Part shown: piece after piece, positions 39,478 through 46,818 of the stretch
How positions within the stretch are numbered: position 1 is the stretch's first letter
Layout of the letters: each line of letters begins with the position of its first letter
The notes under the pieces: model-generated
The model's input: the letters and a program-made list of their open reading frames with translations, nothing else
What the model was told of the DNA's origin: nothing
Databases searched by the model: none
NCBI GenBank assembly: GCA_022573815.1
Contig: JACZTG010000003.1
Location: 1-64,000, forward strand
Reading direction: 5' to 3'
Origin: Candidatus Neomarinimicrobiota bacterium
GTDB taxonomy: Bacteria > Fidelibacterota > SORT01
DNA length: 64,000 nt
Position numbers and translations under genes: made by a program

Positions 39478-39792
39478 TCATCCTGATAATGTTCCTCCCA
39501 GCCGGTCCGAAAGATATTCGGCTACGAGCTTCGCATGTGAGCCAGCCCATTCGGTATCGTTATCTGACACAGGAACTATCGTAAGTTCTTTGACGCCCGG
39601 ATCGTATATGATTTCCAGATGCCCTTTCTGTGTATTTTTGCGCAAAAGCCAGATAAGACCTCCGATGGGATATTTCAGGGTACTTGATATTGCCGGTTGC
39701 AATCCGAGAGTTTTACTGCTGTCGAACACCGCCGAAAGAACGTCTCCGATTTCTGAGATAGTATCAAAGTCGTAAATGCGATATTTCCGCAT
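39478..39792 (-). CDS. Hypothetical protein, coupled to the AlkD-like gene
   Basis: A 104-residue protein not recognised as any family. It has one tryptophan-containing hydrophobic stretch (YPIGGLIWLLRKNTQKG) and an otherwise mixed, soluble-looking composition. Its ATG overlaps the stop of the AlkD-like gene in a TAATG, so it is very likely translated by re-initiation. That coupling is the main evidence that it is a real gene. Confidence 0.6.
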   Translation of the reverse strand: MRKYRIYDFDTISEIGDVLSAVFDSSKTLGLQPAISSTLKYPIGGLIWLLRKNTQKGHLEIIYDPGVKELTIVPVSDNDTEWAGSHAKLVAEYLSDRLGGTLSG

Positions 39793-40523
39793 TAAATACC
39801 CAATTCTTTTTTATGAGCCTGATTGAATATTTCGCTTCCATGCTTAAGTACATAAGGAACTGCTAAATCTTTTACGTCTAATAAAAATTTAACTGCCGAC
39901 TCGTTATCTGCCTTGTAAGCTTCACGAATTGCCCATGCAACAGCTTTTCGGACCATATCGTCATTGTCCGCAACGAGGGGACGTAGAACCTCAAAAGTAG
40001 CGGTGGGATTTGAATGGCTGCCGTGGTTCAGAGGAATGGTTGCCGAAGCAGCAAATCTTCGTCTCCATATGTTGGTCTGTTTCGCCCATTTTTTCAAATC
40101 TGTTATGAGGTCAATATTACTGAGGAGTAATTTCCCGGCAAACTGTGTTGCGAGATGATCGCACGTTTCCCAATTGGAGATATAATCAACCCAGTTATCT
40201 ACCAATCTCCAGGTCTGTCTGTCCATTTTATTTACCCGCTTCGCAATAATGAATACAGCGAAGAGTTGTTCCTCACGACCCTCGGTTTTGAAACATTCGT
40301 CAGCTATGGAGAGTAGATCGCTTATAGATAGTTTTTTACCGTTTTCTTTGAAATAATCTCTTGCGATGGCTTTAATTTCCGGCACCGGAACTCCTAAAAT
40401 CCTATCTTCGCTACCTGTCGCTTTATGTACTCCCTCAATGTATGACGGATTTGCCAGAGCTTTGAATTGTTTCTGAATAGGATTGAGCAACTTTTTAACA
40501 TCAGCCGGACTTATCATCATCAA
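39792..40523 (-). CDS. DNA alkylation repair protein (AlkD-like HEAT-repeat family)
   Basis: The 243-residue, all-helical protein matches the AlkD family: RILGVPVPEIKAIARDYF, then EGREEQLFAVFIIAKRV, NWVDYISNWETCDHLATQ and WRRRFAASATIPL, and finally DDMVRKAVAWAIREAYK. AlkD-type enzymes remove bulky alkylated bases without flipping them. The tryptophan/aspartate positions around NWETCD are those used by the family. Three ATG codons in a row or nearly so leave the exact start open by a few residues. A second base-repair gene, a 3-methyladenine glycosylase, lies 2 kb away. Confidence 0.85.
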   Translation of the reverse strand: MMMISPADVKKLLNPIQKQFKALANPSYIEGVHKATGSEDRILGVPVPEIKAIARDYFKENGKKLSISDLLSIADECFKTEGREEQLFAVFIIAKRVNKMDRQTWRLVDNWVDYISNWETCDHLATQFAGKLLLSNIDLITDLKKWAKQTNIWRRRFAASATIPLNHGSHSNPTATFEVLRPLVADNDDMVRKAVAWAIREAYKADNESAVKFLLDVKDLAVPYVLKHGSEIFNQAHKKELGI

Positions 40524-40776
40524 TCTCTACGGTTGCGCTGTCGGATCAGCATGCTGACGATATGGCTGCATACAAAAGTAAAAACAGTCGTTTCAAATTA
40601 AGTTCTCATATTTACGAATAATAATAATGGAAAAATAACTACCTAAAATTAAGTTATTCGTACAGAGATGCAAGGAAAAGAGTTTAGGAATGCCCGGTTC
40701 TTGTTTCTCTATGAGAATCACGGACGTGGAATGATATTCCGGGAAAAAGATTCAGGAGACAATATAATTACTACGC

Positions 40777-42111
40777 TCAGACTGTCTCGGTTTTAGTTTC
40801 CTCTCCGTTGGTATGGACGTTATTCTTAATCCATTCCGTAGTTACGCTCTTAGGTCTTTCGAGCGGAAGTCCAAGCGCTCTCGACCAAATTGAAGAGGCG
40901 AGCACTCCCATAGCTCTTGACACTCCGAACATAACTGTATAATAATCGTATTCCTTTACTCCGTAATGCCATTGTAAACATCCGGAATGGGCATCAACAT
41001 TAGGCCATGGGTTCTTTGCCTTGCCATGTTCCCTGAGCGCATCCGGGACTACCTCATAGACCAAGCTGACTATCTGGAATAATTCGTCATCAGGCAGATG
41101 CCGCAGAGCGAATTCACGCTGCGCAGTATAACGAGGATCCGTTTTTCTTAATACAGCATGACCGTAACCGGGGATAACCTGACCATTATTTAGGGTTTCC
41201 CAAACATGTTTCGTCAATTGTTCTTTCGAGGGGACTCCTCCTCCAAGTGTTTTCTGTAACTGCTGAATCCAGATCAGCACCTCCTGATTTGCTAATCCGT
41301 GCAGTGGACCTGCGAGAGCGTCCATAGCGCCTGAGAGACTGTAATATGCGTCAGAGAGTGTTGAACCGACTAAATGAGCGGAATGAGCCGAAGCGTTGCC
41401 ACCTTCATGGTCGGCATGGATTGTAAGATATAACCTCATCAGTTCTTTATATTCGGGATCTTCAATTCCCATCATATGTGCGTAATTTGCCGCCCAATCA
41501 AGATTTTCGTCAGAATGAATTCTAACACCGTCCTTGAATGAACGACGATAAATATATGCGGCGATTGTAGGAAGTTTGCCAAGCAGATTCATTGTATCCT
41601 CATATTGAGCATCCCAATAATCTTCTTTTTGCATTCCTTCATGATACCGTTTTGAGAAAACCGATTCAGGCTGAAGCGCTAAAATTCCAATGGATAATTG
41701 TGTCATAGGATGAGTATCTTTCGGAAGACCGTCAATTACGTCAAACAGATATTGAGGAACTTCTCGCCTATCCATCCACTCACTGCCAACATCTTTAGCA
41801 TCTTCTTCGGTCGGCATATCGCCTGTCAGCAATAAATAGAACAACCCTTCCGGCAGAGGTTCTTCTCCTCCGGCTGCCTTCGGCAGAAGTTTTTGTAAAT
41901 TAGGAATCGTACAACCCCGAAATCTAATCCCTTCTTCCGGATCGAGAGCAGATGGTTCCCAGACCATACATTTTATACCTCTCATCCCTCCGTAAGCCTG
42001 CGATACGGTCACATCGCCAATTTTTATGTTTCCAAACTCTTTGATGAGCTCTTTTACCTCTTTTCGTTTAGGCTCAATCTTTGAGAAAAGTTTTTCTTTT
42101 AACGTGGACAT
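40777..42111 (-). CDS. gltA: Citrate synthase, eukaryotic-like type
   Basis: This full-length enzyme of about 444 residues has the catalytic histidine and aspartate blocks DALAGPLHGLANQEVL, VIPGYGHAVLRKTDPRY and NVDAHSGCLQWHYG. The N terminus (IKIGDVTVSQAYGGMRGIK and FRGCTIPNLQKLLP) is of the mitochondrial type rather than the E. coli type. It makes citrate from oxaloacetate and acetyl-CoA for the TCA cycle. The start is taken as ATG at 42111, 5 bp after GGAGG; a TTG at 42123 overlaps that ribosome site. It shows that the short citrate synthase-fold protein at 21938 has a different job. Confidence 0.93.
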   Translation of the reverse strand: MSTLKEKLFSKIEPKRKEVKELIKEFGNIKIGDVTVSQAYGGMRGIKCMVWEPSALDPEEGIRFRGCTIPNLQKLLPKAAGGEEPLPEGLFYLLLTGDMPTEEDAKDVGSEWMDRREVPQYLFDVIDGLPKDTHPMTQLSIGILALQPESVFSKRYHEGMQKEDYWDAQYEDTMNLLGKLPTIAAYIYRRSFKDGVRIHSDENLDWAANYAHMMGIEDPEYKELMRLYLTIHADHEGGNASAHSAHLVGSTLSDAYYSLSGAMDALAGPLHGLANQEVLIWIQQLQKTLGGGVPSKEQLTKHVWETLNNGQVIPGYGHAVLRKTDPRYTAQREFALRHLPDDELFQIVSLVYEVVPDALREHGKAKNPWPNVDAHSGCLQWHYGVKEYDYYTVMFGVSRAMGVLASSIWSRALGLPLERPKSVTTEWIKNNVHTNGEETKTETV

Positions 42112-42360
42112 CAATTCCTCCAAAACAACGACATTGAATTCTTTACTGATTATACTTCAAAACCCTGATTTAGTTTCGAATCCAAGCCGATAATTACAAT
42201 TTTCCTTACTCTGATTTTCATCTCAAGTAAGGACATTATTTCACACCCCCGACATGAGGTAGCCCTCTCGTGAGGCTAAGTTAAGCAAGTCTTATATTTT
42301 AATCAATAGGTGAACGGAAATAAATGATAAAAATTAAAAGATGCTTAAGGAAATACTATT

Positions 42361-42549
42361 TTAGTAACGCTCATCTTCCCAATAGCTTTTTTGTTCATCT
42401 ATCATACGAGAAATCAGTCGCGCGATTTTCCGTTTATCGGATGATAGTCGGATGGTCACTTCTTCATCCAAACTCGAACATTTTTTCATAATCATTTCGA
42501 GTTCTTCCAATTCCTCTTTTTCAAGTTCAATACTTAGTTTAGCTCTCAT
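42361..42549 (-). CDS. Small charged hypothetical protein
   Basis: 62 residues, highly charged and helical (ELEKEELEELEMIMKKCS ... KIARLISRMIDEQKSYW). No family is recognised. It has a good GAGGAT ribosome site and lies 19 bp downstream of the 3-methyladenine glycosylase gene on the same strand, which supports it being a real, co-transcribed gene. The helical amphipathic pattern suggests a small dimer or a protein-binding peptide. Confidence 0.5.
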   Translation of the reverse strand: MRAKLSIELEKEELEELEMIMKKCSSLDEEVTIRLSSDKRKIARLISRMIDEQKSYWEDERY

Positions 42550-42568
42550 AAAAATATTATCCTCTTCT

Positions 42569-43111
42569 TCAATTACTTATAAATTTATTGTCCTTAATAT
42601 AAAACCGCCACTCAAGGTCAGTGGCTTTGCTGATGCCTATTCGTGTGCTACTGACGATTTCAGGTCTAAAATTTCTTTCATAAAGAGATATAGCCTCACC
42701 AATCATTTTATTGTTCTGATCAGGACCAATTCCAAAAGCCTGACAAAGCTTACCCGGACCATTAGTGAGGTTTTTCATTTTCTCGGTCTTTCGACGTTTT
42801 TGCATGACTTCTATACCTTCTATCGGTTCCAATGCTCTTATCAGCACTGCCCCGATACCATTTTTTTCTGTCGTAAAATTCAGGAGATGATACATCCCGT
42901 AGTTCAGATAGATGTAAACTTGTCCGTAGCTGTTCGCAAGCGCCCTGCCCTTAATTTTGCGAGTCTTGAAATGAGAAGCGTCATCGGTTTTGTAAGCCTC
43001 AGTCTCCACAATCATCCCCCGACATTCTCCAAAAGCGATTTCTACACCAAGAAGGTTTTTTGCGACTTCAAGAGTTTCGCCTGCGAAGAAGTCTTTATAT
43101 AATATTTTCAT
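42569..43111 (-). CDS. DNA-3-methyladenine glycosylase (AAG/MPG type)
   Basis: The 180-residue protein matches the AAG/MPG family: LLGVEIAFGECRGMIVETEAY, NSYGQVYIYLNYGMYHLLNF, GAVLIRALEP and LTNGPGKLCQAFGI. The glutamate in IVETEAY is the catalytic base, and the tyrosine in YIYLNYGMY intercalates into DNA. It cuts damaged purines from DNA. Its start overlaps the end of the SDR gene by 4 bp, so they are coupled. The family fold is normal in length. Confidence 0.9.
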   Translation of the reverse strand: MKILYKDFFAGETLEVAKNLLGVEIAFGECRGMIVETEAYKTDDASHFKTRKIKGRALANSYGQVYIYLNYGMYHLLNFTTEKNGIGAVLIRALEPIEGIEVMQKRRKTEKMKNLTNGPGKLCQAFGIGPDQNNKMIGEAISLYERNFRPEIVSSTRIGISKATDLEWRFYIKDNKFISN

Positions 43112-43855: not shown

Positions 43856-44608
43856 TTAAGTTCTCAGTTTATAACCGATTTTAAACAGATACAAACTAAT
43901 TGAGCCGAGTAATAAACTGGAAAACAGCGTCGTGATAATAGCAGTTCCAAGATTGATGTCGCCAACTCCTATCATCCCGAATCTTAAGCCGTTTACCATA
44001 TAAACTATGGGATTGAACAATGAAACTTTAGCCCAAAACGGCGGTAACATACTTGTTGAGTAAAAAACTCCTCCCAGATATACAAGCGGTGTTATCAGAT
44101 AAGTCTGAAAAATTCCGAGATGCTCGAATTTTTCCGCCCATAACCCCGTTAATAAGCCGAGCTGAGCGAAAACTATGCTTACGAAGACTATGAAAAAAGT
44201 AACAATATAATAGTTGTTAATTTGAATATCCATAAGCAGTAAACCGGCCGCTAAAGTCACTACTCCGACTATCAATCCGCGCACCATTCCACCCAGCACT
44301 ATAGCCGTTACCATCTCGAAATATGAAAGCGGAGAAGTCAGTATATCAGCTATGTTACCTTGAAACTTGGACATAAAAAGCGATGAGGAAGTATTCATAT
44401 AAGAGGAATTTATAACTCCCATCATCATCAATCCGGGAAAGATATATTGCATATATGTCACCCCTTCGATATCGCTTATCCTTGAGCCGATGGAATATCC
44501 GAAAATTGTGATATACAGAAGTGCGGACATAAATGGAGGAACTAAAGTCTGATTTGGGAGGCTTAAAAATCGGATGATCTCTCTTTTCAGAAGAGTCCAA
44601 AAGCCGAT
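43856..44608 (-). CDS. ABC-2 type transporter permease
   Basis: This integral membrane protein has six hydrophobic segments and ABC-2 signatures (LLKREIIRFLSLPNQTLVPP, YMQYIFPGLMMMGVINSSYM, LITPLVYLGGVFYSTSMLP). It is the export channel for the ATPase gene upstream. Counting from 44608 gives about 250 residues, normal for the family. There the codon is ATC, sharing its A with the ATPase stop (TAATC). The first standard start codons, TTG at 44755 or ATG at 44788, would overlap the ATPase gene by about 150-180 bp and add non-conserved sequence. The ATC start is therefore preferred, but is unproven. Confidence 0.75.
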   Translation of the reverse strand: MGFWTLLKREIIRFLSLPNQTLVPPFMSALLYITIFGYSIGSRISDIEGVTYMQYIFPGLMMMGVINSSYMNTSSSLFMSKFQGNIADILTSPLSYFEMVTAIVLGGMVRGLIVGVVTLAAGLLLMDIQINNYYIVTFFIVFVSIVFAQLGLLTGLWAEKFEHLGIFQTYLITPLVYLGGVFYSTSMLPPFWAKVSLFNPIVYMVNGLRFGMIGVGDINLGTAIITTLFSSLLLGSISLYLFKIGYKLRT

Positions 44609-45540
44609 TAGTTTACTTTCGTTGTACTCCCCGTGAGCCTGAGAAAAATGTCCTCCAATTTTCCTGACACTGTCTTCAGGTCTTCCACTTCTATGCTCGA
44701 GTTCACCAGAGCCTTCAACAGCCCCGACATCGTTTGATTTTTCTTGTCGAGACAAAGCGTCAACTTTCCCTCTTTCGATTTCTTGCATTCATACTCCTTT
44801 AACTCTTCCGGTATAACATCAACAGGTGATGAGGGTGTAATTTCTATCAATTGATAATCAATTTCCTTCATCAGTTCGTTTTTGTCAATATCCCGGATTA
44901 TTTTTCCTTTATGAATAATTGCGATTTTATCGCACAGCGCTTCGGCTTCTTCTATATAATGTGTCGTGAGGAGAATCGTGGTGCCGTTATTTCTCAATTC
45001 ATCCATAGATTTCCAGATTTTTCTACGGAGCTCAACATCTACACCGGCGGTAGGTTCGTCGAGAATCAGGAGCTTCGGTTTGTGCATCATTGCCCTTGCG
45101 ATAAGTAGTCTTCGTTTGAGGCCTCCGCTCAGGCGCCTGAACGGTAACTTCCGATGCTCCACCAAATCAAAATATTCGAGAAGTTCTTCAGCACGGGCTT
45201 TTCGTTCTTTTGACCTCATTCCAAAATATCCGCCCTGAAGATTCAGAACAGTTTCAGCTGGAAAGAAAAAATCGAGGTTCGGTTCCTGTGGCGAAAGACC
45301 CACCAATCTTCGTGCAGACCGATAATCTTTTACTACATCATTGCCGAATACACTCACGCTGCCGGATGTAATATTCGTTAGTCCTGTTATTATATTTATT
45401 GTAGTAGTTTTACCAGCGCCGTTCGGTCCGAGAAAACCGTAAAATTCACCTTCTTTTATGGTGAGGTCAATACCCGCTAATGCGACTTTTGAGCCATAGT
45501 TTTTTTTGAGATTATGTATCTCGAGAGCGTTAACTGACAA
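44608..45540 (-). CDS. ABC transporter ATP-binding protein (DrrA/CcmA-like)
   Basis: The 310-residue ATPase has Walker A (FLGPNGAGKTTTINII), the ABC signature (RLSGGLKRRLLIARAMMH), Walker B (LLILDEPTAGVD) and the switch histidine (LLTTHYIEEAEALCD). A C-terminal domain (about 230-310) is typical of drug- or lipid-type ABC-2 exporters. The permease gene follows on the same strand with a stop-start overlap. The exported substrate is unknown. Confidence 0.9.
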   Translation of the reverse strand: MSVNALEIHNLKKNYGSKVALAGIDLTIKEGEFYGFLGPNGAGKTTTINIITGLTNITSGSVSVFGNDVVKDYRSARRLVGLSPQEPNLDFFFPAETVLNLQGGYFGMRSKERKARAEELLEYFDLVEHRKLPFRRLSGGLKRRLLIARAMMHKPKLLILDEPTAGVDVELRRKIWKSMDELRNNGTTILLTTHYIEEAEALCDKIAIIHKGKIIRDIDKNELMKEIDYQLIEITPSSPVDVIPEELKEYECKKSKEGKLTLCLDKKNQTMSGLLKALVNSSIEVEDLKTVSGKLEDIFLRLTGSTTKVN

Positions 45541-45726: not shown

Positions 45727-46818
45727 ATGAAAAGAATGCTGACAGCGCTGTTAATTATGACAGCAGTGTCTCTCACAACAATTGATTTGAATGCGCAGAC
45801 GCTGACTTGCGAGCAATGTGGAAATCCCATTCGGCCAGGAAATTATACGATGGTGGACGGGAAAGCCTATCATCCGGAGCACTTTCTTTGCGCTTTTTGC
45901 GGCAACCCGATTTTGGATACGCAGTTTTATAAAGATGGCGGGAATTATTATCATCCTGACCATTATGCTCAGCACATTGCTCCGAAATGCGCTTTTTGCG
46001 GACAACCGATTATCGGCGAATACATAAAATCAGAAGGGAAAACATATCATAAGGATCATTATGACCAGCATATTGCTTTAAAGTGCGATTTTTGCGGCTT
46101 AACAATAAACGGAGATTATACGAAAACTTTCTGGGGAGAGTCCTACCACAAGTATCATGACGGAAACGTTGATAAATGTGATTACTGTTCGCGCTATATT
46201 TCGGATTCGGGTACAGGCGGAGGAGTAAGGTATAATGACGGCAGAAATATTTGCGGAATATGTTTAGCGACAGTGGTAAATGATTACGCCTTAGCGCAGC
46301 ACCTTTTTCGTGATGTAAAAAAGGAACTGAGAGGATATGGTATTGATATTAATTGGGATGATATAGGGTTCTATCTTGTTGACAGAAATTACATTTCTCA
46401 GCTTTCAAATGAAAATCGGGTAATAGAGCAGCAAACAGGGTTTACTTATCATCGGTTTGAGACGCTTAACGGACAAATTCGCAGCAGAAAATTTGATGTT
46501 TACATTCTAAGCGGAATGCCCGAGATAAATTTTATATCGACTGCCGCACATGAATTGATGCACGTTTGGCTATATCTTAATGCATCGTATGATATGGATA
46601 AATCTTTAAGTGAAGGGAGCGCAAATTTCGCTTCATATCTTGTATTGAGAAATAGAAAAGTGGATAGGGCGAGGTTTCTGATAGAGAATCTTGAAAACGA
46701 CAGGGACCCGGTTTACGGAGACGGGTACAGAAGGGTGAAACAGTTTGTGGGAACAAGAGGGATGAACGGCTGGATCGGCTATCTAAAAAATAATCTTATC
46801 ATTCCCATAGGATATTGA
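45727..46818 (+). CDS. Secreted LIM-type zinc-finger protein with DA1-like metallopeptidase domain
   Basis: The protein starts with a signal peptide (MKRMLTALLIMTAVSLTTID) and has about three LIM-type zinc modules. Their CxxC knuckles read CEQC, CAFC, CAFC, CDFC, CDYC and CGIC, with YHPEHF and YYHPDHY histidines between them. A C-terminal domain follows with AAHELMHVWLYLNASYDM and DKSLSEGSANFASYLVL. HELMH (46549-46563) with a downstream Glu-Gly is the zinc site of the DA1 peptidase family, best known from plants. It should act outside the cytoplasm. Earlier in-frame starts (TTG 45691, ATG 45700) exist; 45727 gives the cleanest signal peptide. The target is unknown. Confidence 0.8.
   Translation: MKRMLTALLIMTAVSLTTIDLNAQTLTCEQCGNPIRPGNYTMVDGKAYHPEHFLCAFCGNPILDTQFYKDGGNYYHPDHYAQHIAPKCAFCGQPIIGEYIKSEGKTYHKDHYDQHIALKCDFCGLTINGDYTKTFWGESYHKYHDGNVDKCDYCSRYISDSGTGGGVRYNDGRNICGICLATVVNDYALAQHLFRDVKKELRGYGIDINWDDIGFYLVDRNYISQLSNENRVIEQQTGFTYHRFETLNGQIRSRKFDVYILSGMPEINFISTAAHELMHVWLYLNASYDMDKSLSEGSANFASYLVLRNRKVDRARFLIENLENDRDPVYGDGYRRVKQFVGTRGMNGWIGYLKNNLIIPIGY

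What the first reader, a model, noticed from the sequence alone, without database searches (positions are those of the whole stretch)
45727..46818. Secreted bacterial LIM-type zinc-finger protein with a DA1-like HELMH peptidase domain
The architecture (LIM-type zinc modules followed by a DA1-type peptidase domain) recalls plant DA1 proteins, which control organ size by cutting growth regulators. Here it carries a bacterial signal peptide, so it should act outside the cytoplasm, where zinc fingers and ubiquitin-linked control would have a different meaning. It could be an ancestral form or a secreted peptidase aimed at other organisms.
Basis: partly seen in the sequence, partly recalled or inferred. 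Interest (0 to 1): 0.7.

Follow-up and report, generated by a model that had tools for sequence, protein, structure and literature searches.

The report
Exported bacterial LIM-DA1 zinc peptidase
This is a real gene for an exported zinc-dependent protein-cutting enzyme that carries the same zinc-finger-plus-peptidase core as the plant growth regulator DA1; relatives are scattered through many bacteria, so it is a new member of a known family rather than a new kind of system.

Summary
Window 45727-46818 (+) encodes 363 aa: a signal peptide, one full LIM domain, one extra CxxC/HxxH zinc module, the DA1 'LIM-like' domain, and a DA1-type HELMH...E zinc-peptidase domain. Pfam scores both above their cut-offs (LIM 56.2 bits, DA1-like 43.7), and an AlphaFold2 model of the peptidase part is confident (pLDDT 92.8, pTM 0.90). 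The host is a Marinimicrobia-type bacterium. The gene is single-copy and stands alone, with the same neighbours in two relatives. 41 of 245 genomes of the phylum have a DA1-like gene, and relatives occur in about ten other phyla. In 76 sequences the eight LIM-like zinc ligands and H-E-H-E are invariant, apart from His/Cys exchange at one ligand. Most family members are exported, but Bacteroidales, Sericytochromatia and a few others have a cytosolic form; in Bacteroidales this often sits beside vWA/PP2C/kinase (TerY-P-like) or DO-GTPase genes. Best reading: an exported, self-contained zinc endopeptidase that trims specific envelope proteins, with LIM modules for docking or latency. A ubiquitin link is not supported for this protein, and attack on other organisms has no positive evidence. 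Bacterial LIM-DA1 proteins were already noted (Dong 2017, citing Burroughs 2011).

The parts
45727..46818 (+). whole gene: exported LIM-DA1 zinc peptidase, 363 aa
   Evidence: ORF; Pfam LIM + DA1-like above cut-offs; conserved and syntenic in relatives
45727..45798 (+). signal peptide (residues 1-24), no lipobox seen
   Evidence: sequence; model helix 2-21; hydrophobic N-terminus in nearly all secreted-type relatives with a complete start, absent from cytosolic types
45808..45969 (+). canonical LIM domain, residues 28-81, two predicted zinc sites
   Evidence: PF00412; fold match to PINCH1/TES/LMO2 LIM pairs
45988..46059 (+). extra single-zinc CxxC/HxxH module, residues 88-111
   Evidence: motif positions; number of such upstream modules varies between relatives
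46084..46263 (+). DA1 LIM-like domain, residues 120-179, two predicted zinc sites
   Evidence: C120 C123 H141 H144 C151 C154 C176 C179 invariant (H/C exchange at 141 only) in 76 sequences
46279..46815 (+). DA1-like peptidase domain, residues 185-363
   Evidence: PF12315 46.8 bits; AlphaFold2 pLDDT 92.8, pTM 0.90
46549..46563 (+). HELMH catalytic motif, residues 275-279, inside helix 266-285
46612..46614 (+). E296, predicted third zinc ligand, in the next helix (292-307)
   Evidence: invariant E-G in 76 sequences; aligns with the second E of plant HEMMHX15EE (PMC5322733)

Best explanation
An exported, single-chain zinc metallo-endopeptidase of the DA1 family (gluzincin type, HExxH plus downstream Glu). 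The signal peptide sends it through the Sec pathway to the periplasm or beyond. There the invariant LIM-like domain supports the peptidase fold and probably gates its activity, while the upstream LIM modules, whose number varies between species, dock selected client proteins. It then makes limited cuts in a few envelope or exported proteins. Shown here: gene, domain membership, intact ligands and catalytic residues, model with HExxH and Glu helices, conservation. Inferred: actual export, zinc occupancy, peptidase activity, LIM docking or gating, identity of substrates.
For: Pfam LIM and DA1-like above curated cut-offs; all 40 diverse peptidase parts hit PF12315. H275, E276, H279, E296 invariant in 76 sequences, and the eight LIM-like ligands invariant except His/Cys exchange at 141 in 12 of 76, as expected of a zinc ligand and not of a disulfide (HExxH and E-G were partly used to pick sequences). 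Confident models. Weak fold matches point to gluzincins: ACE2, M32 carboxypeptidases; LIM part to PINCH/TES/LMO2. Signal peptide conserved across phyla. Number of upstream modules varies while the LIM-like-peptidase core does not. In plant DA1, mutating the LIM-like Cys274 or HEMMH abolishes cleavage (PMC5322733).
Against: No activity data. No closely matching solved structure; Foldseek hits to the peptidase part are all above E 0.001. HExxH also occurs in non-peptidases (an HExxH 2-oxoglutarate oxygenase, 8s5f, is among the weak matches). Zinc-thiolate fingers outside the cytoplasm could be oxidised. Gene neighbours give no clue to substrate.
Confidence: 0.68

Rival explanations
1. The N-terminal helix is not cleaved, so the protein is a membrane-anchored periplasmic LIM peptidase that processes membrane proteins near the site of export.
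For: One N-terminal hydrophobic helix 2-21; from memory, Burroughs 2011 describes prokaryotic LIM domains as partners of membrane-associated peptidases.
Against: The helix ends in a plausible cleavage site (..DLNA/QT) and the first LIM ligand C28 follows closely, leaving little spacer; many relatives have similarly typical signal peptides.
Confidence: 0.2
2. The LIM modules act mainly as metal or redox sensors: they hold the peptidase latent, and zinc loss or cysteine oxidation outside the cytoplasm switches it on.
For: Zinc-thiolate sites in an exported protein are redox-exposed; the LIM-like domain is needed for plant DA1 activity (PMC5322733). Cytosolic relatives lie beside TerY-P-like triads, which the literature proposes to be metal-sensing switches (PMC11090510).
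Against: Not tested directly; no sensing behaviour is visible from sequence, and structural zinc in LIM domains is usually tightly held (general knowledge).
Confidence: 0.2
3. Secreted effector aimed at other organisms.
Against: Monocistronic among housekeeping genes, same gene order in two relatives, no phage, plasmid or viral relatives found, no secretion-system or immunity gene beside it, single copy in the genome.
Confidence: 0.05
4. Ubiquitin-linked peptidase like plant DA1.
For: Same core domains as plant DA1.
Against: No UIM family hit; no ubiquitin or E2 match in the genome (without positive control); exported.
Confidence: 0.02
5. The HExxH domain is a non-peptidase metalloenzyme or an inactive scaffold.
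For: An HExxH oxygenase is among the weak fold matches.
Against: Complete H-E-H-E set kept in 76 sequences; direct Pfam membership in DA1-like, whose plant member is a shown peptidase (PMC5322733).
Confidence: 0.08

Closest known systems
Plant DA1/DAR peptidases (Pfam PF12315; Dong et al. 2017, PMC5322733)
   Same: canonical LIM, then LIM-like domain with four metal pairs, then HExxH-x(15-16)-E peptidase; LIM-like and HExxH needed for activity in the plant protein
   Different: no UIMs, signal peptide and export, an extra half LIM module, SEG instead of EEG after the motif, no known ubiquitin system
Bacterial LIM-DA1 proteins noted earlier (Roseiflexus; Burroughs, Iyer and Aravind 2011, cited in PMC5322733)
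   Same: LIM-like plus DA1 similarity in bacteria
   Different: paper not held, so its architectures and localisation could not be compared in detail; this member is in Marinimicrobia and exported
Cytosolic Bacteroidales LIM-DA1 proteins (L093, L105, L107, L124-L131)
   Same: same LIM-like and peptidase core with the same invariant residues
   Different: no signal peptide, no extra LIM upstream, often beside vWA/PP2C/kinase or DO-GTPase genes
Gluzincin peptidases such as ACE2 (M2), M32 carboxypeptidase, MJ1213
   Same: HExxH helix plus Glu helix by model; weak fold or profile matches
   Different: no significant overall similarity; no LIM domains

Membership tests
DA1-like (Pfam PF12315) | profile match above curated cut-off | tested here: met
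   43.7 bits whole protein, 46.8 peptidase part, cut-off 25
DA1-like (Pfam PF12315) | HExxH plus downstream Glu active site (plant HEMMHX15EE) | tested here: met
   HELMH-x16-E, second Glu of the plant EE kept; invariant in 76 sequences
DA1-like (Pfam PF12315) | LIM-like domain with four C/H metal pairs just before the peptidase | tested here: met
   residues 120-179
DA1-like (Pfam PF12315) | peptidase activity | not testable with these tools
   needs purified protein
Plant-type DA1 (ubiquitin-activated) | N-terminal ubiquitin-interacting motifs | tested here: not met
   no UIM family in the Pfam scan at E up to 1; signal peptide instead
Plant-type DA1 (ubiquitin-activated) | host ubiquitin/E2 system | tested here: inconclusive
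   no hit to PF00179 or PF00240, but no control genome rang
LIM domain (PF00412) | profile match with double zinc-site ligand pattern | tested here: met
   56.2 bits, residues 28-81; fold matches to eukaryotic LIM pairs
Exported protein | Sec signal peptide and extracytoplasmic location | tested here: inconclusive
   signal-peptide features by sequence and by N-terminal hydrophobicity across the family; no dedicated predictor was available and location was not measured
Gluzincin metallopeptidase | zinc held by two His of HExxH and a distant Glu, in a cleft | tested here: inconclusive
   helices and residues placed as expected in a confident model, but coordinates were not measured and Foldseek matches are weak
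TerY-P-associated protein | adjacent vWA, PP2C and kinase genes | tested here: not met
   window neighbours are ABC transporter, SDR, proline dehydrogenase, nuo genes; met only by cytosolic Bacteroidales relatives

The most novel reading that the evidence does not exclude
LIM-DA1 peptidases are an old, widely scattered bacterial family that works in two compartments with the same zinc-gated core: an exported form with a variable string of LIM modules that processes envelope proteins, and a cytosolic form used as the cutting component of phospho-switch (vWA/PP2C/kinase) and DO-GTPase conflict or stress systems. Eukaryotes would then have taken over a latent, LIM-gated peptidase and later wired it to ubiquitin.
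Probability: 0.3. Interest if true: 0.62.

Novelty: new member of a known kind. Interest (0 to 1): 0.4.

Why it matters
DA1 controls seed and organ size in plants, yet how its LIM-like domain switches the peptidase on is not established, and the searches here found no solved structure that closely matches the peptidase domain. A compact, apparently ubiquitin-independent bacterial relative (about 250-400 aa) would be an easy model for that switch. The exported form also poses a testable puzzle: zinc-thiolate LIM domains working outside the cytoplasm. The cytosolic form beside kinase/phosphatase switches suggests that control of this peptidase by signalling may be older than its link to ubiquitin.

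Tried and rejected
Ubiquitin link: no UIM, ubiquitin or E2 hits, the genome searches being uncontrolled. Mobile or viral origin: no relatives in phages, plasmids or viral contigs; fold matches in the viral library were weak SprT, IrrE and other peptidase-like proteins. Operon context for the window gene: none; same order ABC - LIM-DA1 - proline dehydrogenase - nuo in two relatives. Sequence search for a solved DA1 structure: only LIM structures and chance-level HExxH hits. NCBIfam gave no family above cut-off. The Burroughs 2011 paper is not held. A tree with plant DA1 was not possible for want of plant sequences.

Full report
What is there. The ORF at 45727-46818 (+) is a genuine gene encoding 363 aa. 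The protein starts with a Sec-type signal peptide, then carries paired C/H ligands at 28/31, 49/52, 55/58, 76/79 (one full LIM domain), 88/91, 108/111 (one single-zinc module), and 120/123, 141/144, 151/154, 176/179 (the LIM-like domain typical of DA1), and ends in a DA1-like domain with HELMH 275-279 and E296. Pfam LIM scores 56.2 bits (cut-off 22.9) and DA1-like 43.7 bits (cut-off 25; 46.8 with the peptidase part alone).

Source and context. The nearest named relatives (L031 and L032, 63-65% identity) are Candidatus Neomarinimicrobiota/Marinimicrobia genomes. In the window and in both relatives the gene stands alone between a divergent ABC-2 transporter pair plus SDR gene and a convergent proline dehydrogenase followed by nuo genes. 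It is the only DA1-like and the only LIM match in its 2.39 Mb genome. In the phylum 41 of 245 genomes have a DA1-like match (15 of 94 among the best-quality genomes), one per genome, so the gene is patchy.

Family. A scan of 85,000 species genomes gave 80 kept loci in Marinimicrobia, Zixibacteria, Ignavibacteria, Calditrichota, Desulfobacterota, Verrucomicrobia (Opitutae), Sericytochromatia, Bacteroidales, Fusobacteria, Myxococcota and others. In 76 usable sequences all eight LIM-like ligands are Cys or His, with His/Cys exchange at residue 141 in 12, and H275, E276, H279, E296, G297 never vary. Caveat: the scan pattern contained HExxH and my ORF filter asked for E-G or E-E downstream, so those positions are partly selected; the LIM-like ligands served only to mark the start of the core, but sequences without a recognisable core were left out. 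An independent set of 19 found by the Pfam profile or close to the window shows the same invariants. Upstream LIM modules vary from none to about four while the core is constant.

Structure. AlphaFold2 gives mean pLDDT 89.1 for the whole chain and 92.8 with pTM 0.90 for the peptidase part. HELMH lies in a 20-residue helix and E296 in the next helix, the gluzincin arrangement. Foldseek finds eukaryotic LIM pairs for the zinc part (best E 2e-7, PINCH1). For the peptidase part it finds only weak matches led by gluzincins (ACE2 E 0.013, M32 carboxypeptidase E 0.1).

Two compartments. N-terminal hydrophobicity splits the family: signal peptides in Marinimicrobia, Zixibacteria, Ignavibacteria, Calditrichota, Desulfobacterota and Opitutae; none in Bacteroidales, Sericytochromatia, the Fusobacteria member and the Myxococcota member. 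L105 was counted as exported in the tree, but its likely start gives a cytosolic protein. On the tree the label needs four changes, at least three of them forced by well-supported branches; correcting L105 would lower this slightly. The window protein groups with Zixibacteria and Ignavibacteria forms (99 support) and not with most other Marinimicrobia forms, which points to ancient paralogy or horizontal transfer.

Neighbours of the cytosolic form. In Bacteroidales the gene is rare (8 of 200 genomes of one family, 3 of 393 drawn from the order). In 9 of 17 loci it sits beside a complete vWA + PP2C + Ser/Thr kinase set, in one more there are PP2C and kinase genes within a few kilobases, and in three it lies beside a DO-GTPase/GAP1-type protein, although the peptidases are as little as 23-40% identical across groups. 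Several of the nine are related to each other (55-74%), so these are not nine independent events. vWA/PP2C/kinase sets of this kind are known as TerY-P triads and are proposed to be metal-sensing phospho-switches tied to defence (PMC11090510); DO-GTPase systems are predicted conflict systems (PMC7159879). Four Zixibacteria contigs have the exported form directly upstream of Ser/Thr kinases. None of this applies to the window gene itself.

How it most likely works. Exported zinc endopeptidase, LIM modules for docking or latency, limited cleavage of envelope proteins. Plant DA1 gives the precedent: HEMMH and LIM-like Cys274 are both needed for cleavage (PMC5322733). Export, activity and substrates are inferred.

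Novelty. The kind is known: Dong et al. reported that plant DA1 resembles Roseiflexus proteins and cited Burroughs et al. 2011 for the bacterial LIM family. What is added here is the exported, UIM-less member in Marinimicrobia, the breadth of the bacterial family, the two compartment types and the recurrent link of the cytosolic type to phospho-switch loci. Whether that link was described before could not be checked in the papers held.

Noticed in passing
L093, L105, L107, L124, L125, L127, L128, L129, L131 (and partly L130): Cytosolic LIM-DA1 genes of Bacteroidales lie beside vWA + PP2C + Ser/Thr kinase genes (TerY-P-like triads), with peptidases as little as 23-40% identical between groups.
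   Followed up: partly
L100:804-8732, L110:327-8744, L123: Cytosolic LIM-DA1 gene beside a large protein with DO-GTPase2 and GAP1-N2 matches and (L100, L110) a type IV coupling-protein-like gene.
   Followed up: partly
L046, L049, L082, L106: Zixibacteria exported LIM-DA1 gene directly followed by one to three Ser/Thr kinases (TPR repeats in the one scanned) on the same strand.
   Followed up: partly
L101:5719-14429: Cytosolic LIM-DA1 gene followed by a vWA-like protein, a tubulin-like protein (PF13809) and a papain-family protease, a possible conflict locus.
   Followed up: no
window 43856-45540 (-): The ABC permease and ATPase ORFs overlap by about 180 bases in different frames; the same overlap and the same 310-aa lengths recur in L031 and L032, so either a long conserved overlap or a later true start.
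   Followed up: no
window 39792-43111 (-): Two alkylation-repair genes near each other: DNA_alkylation (PF08713) at 39792-40523 and methylpurine-DNA glycosylase at 42569-43111, either side of citrate synthase.
   Followed up: no
tree: The window LIM-DA1 clade groups with Zixibacteria/Ignavibacteria rather than with most other Marinimicrobia copies.
   Followed up: partly
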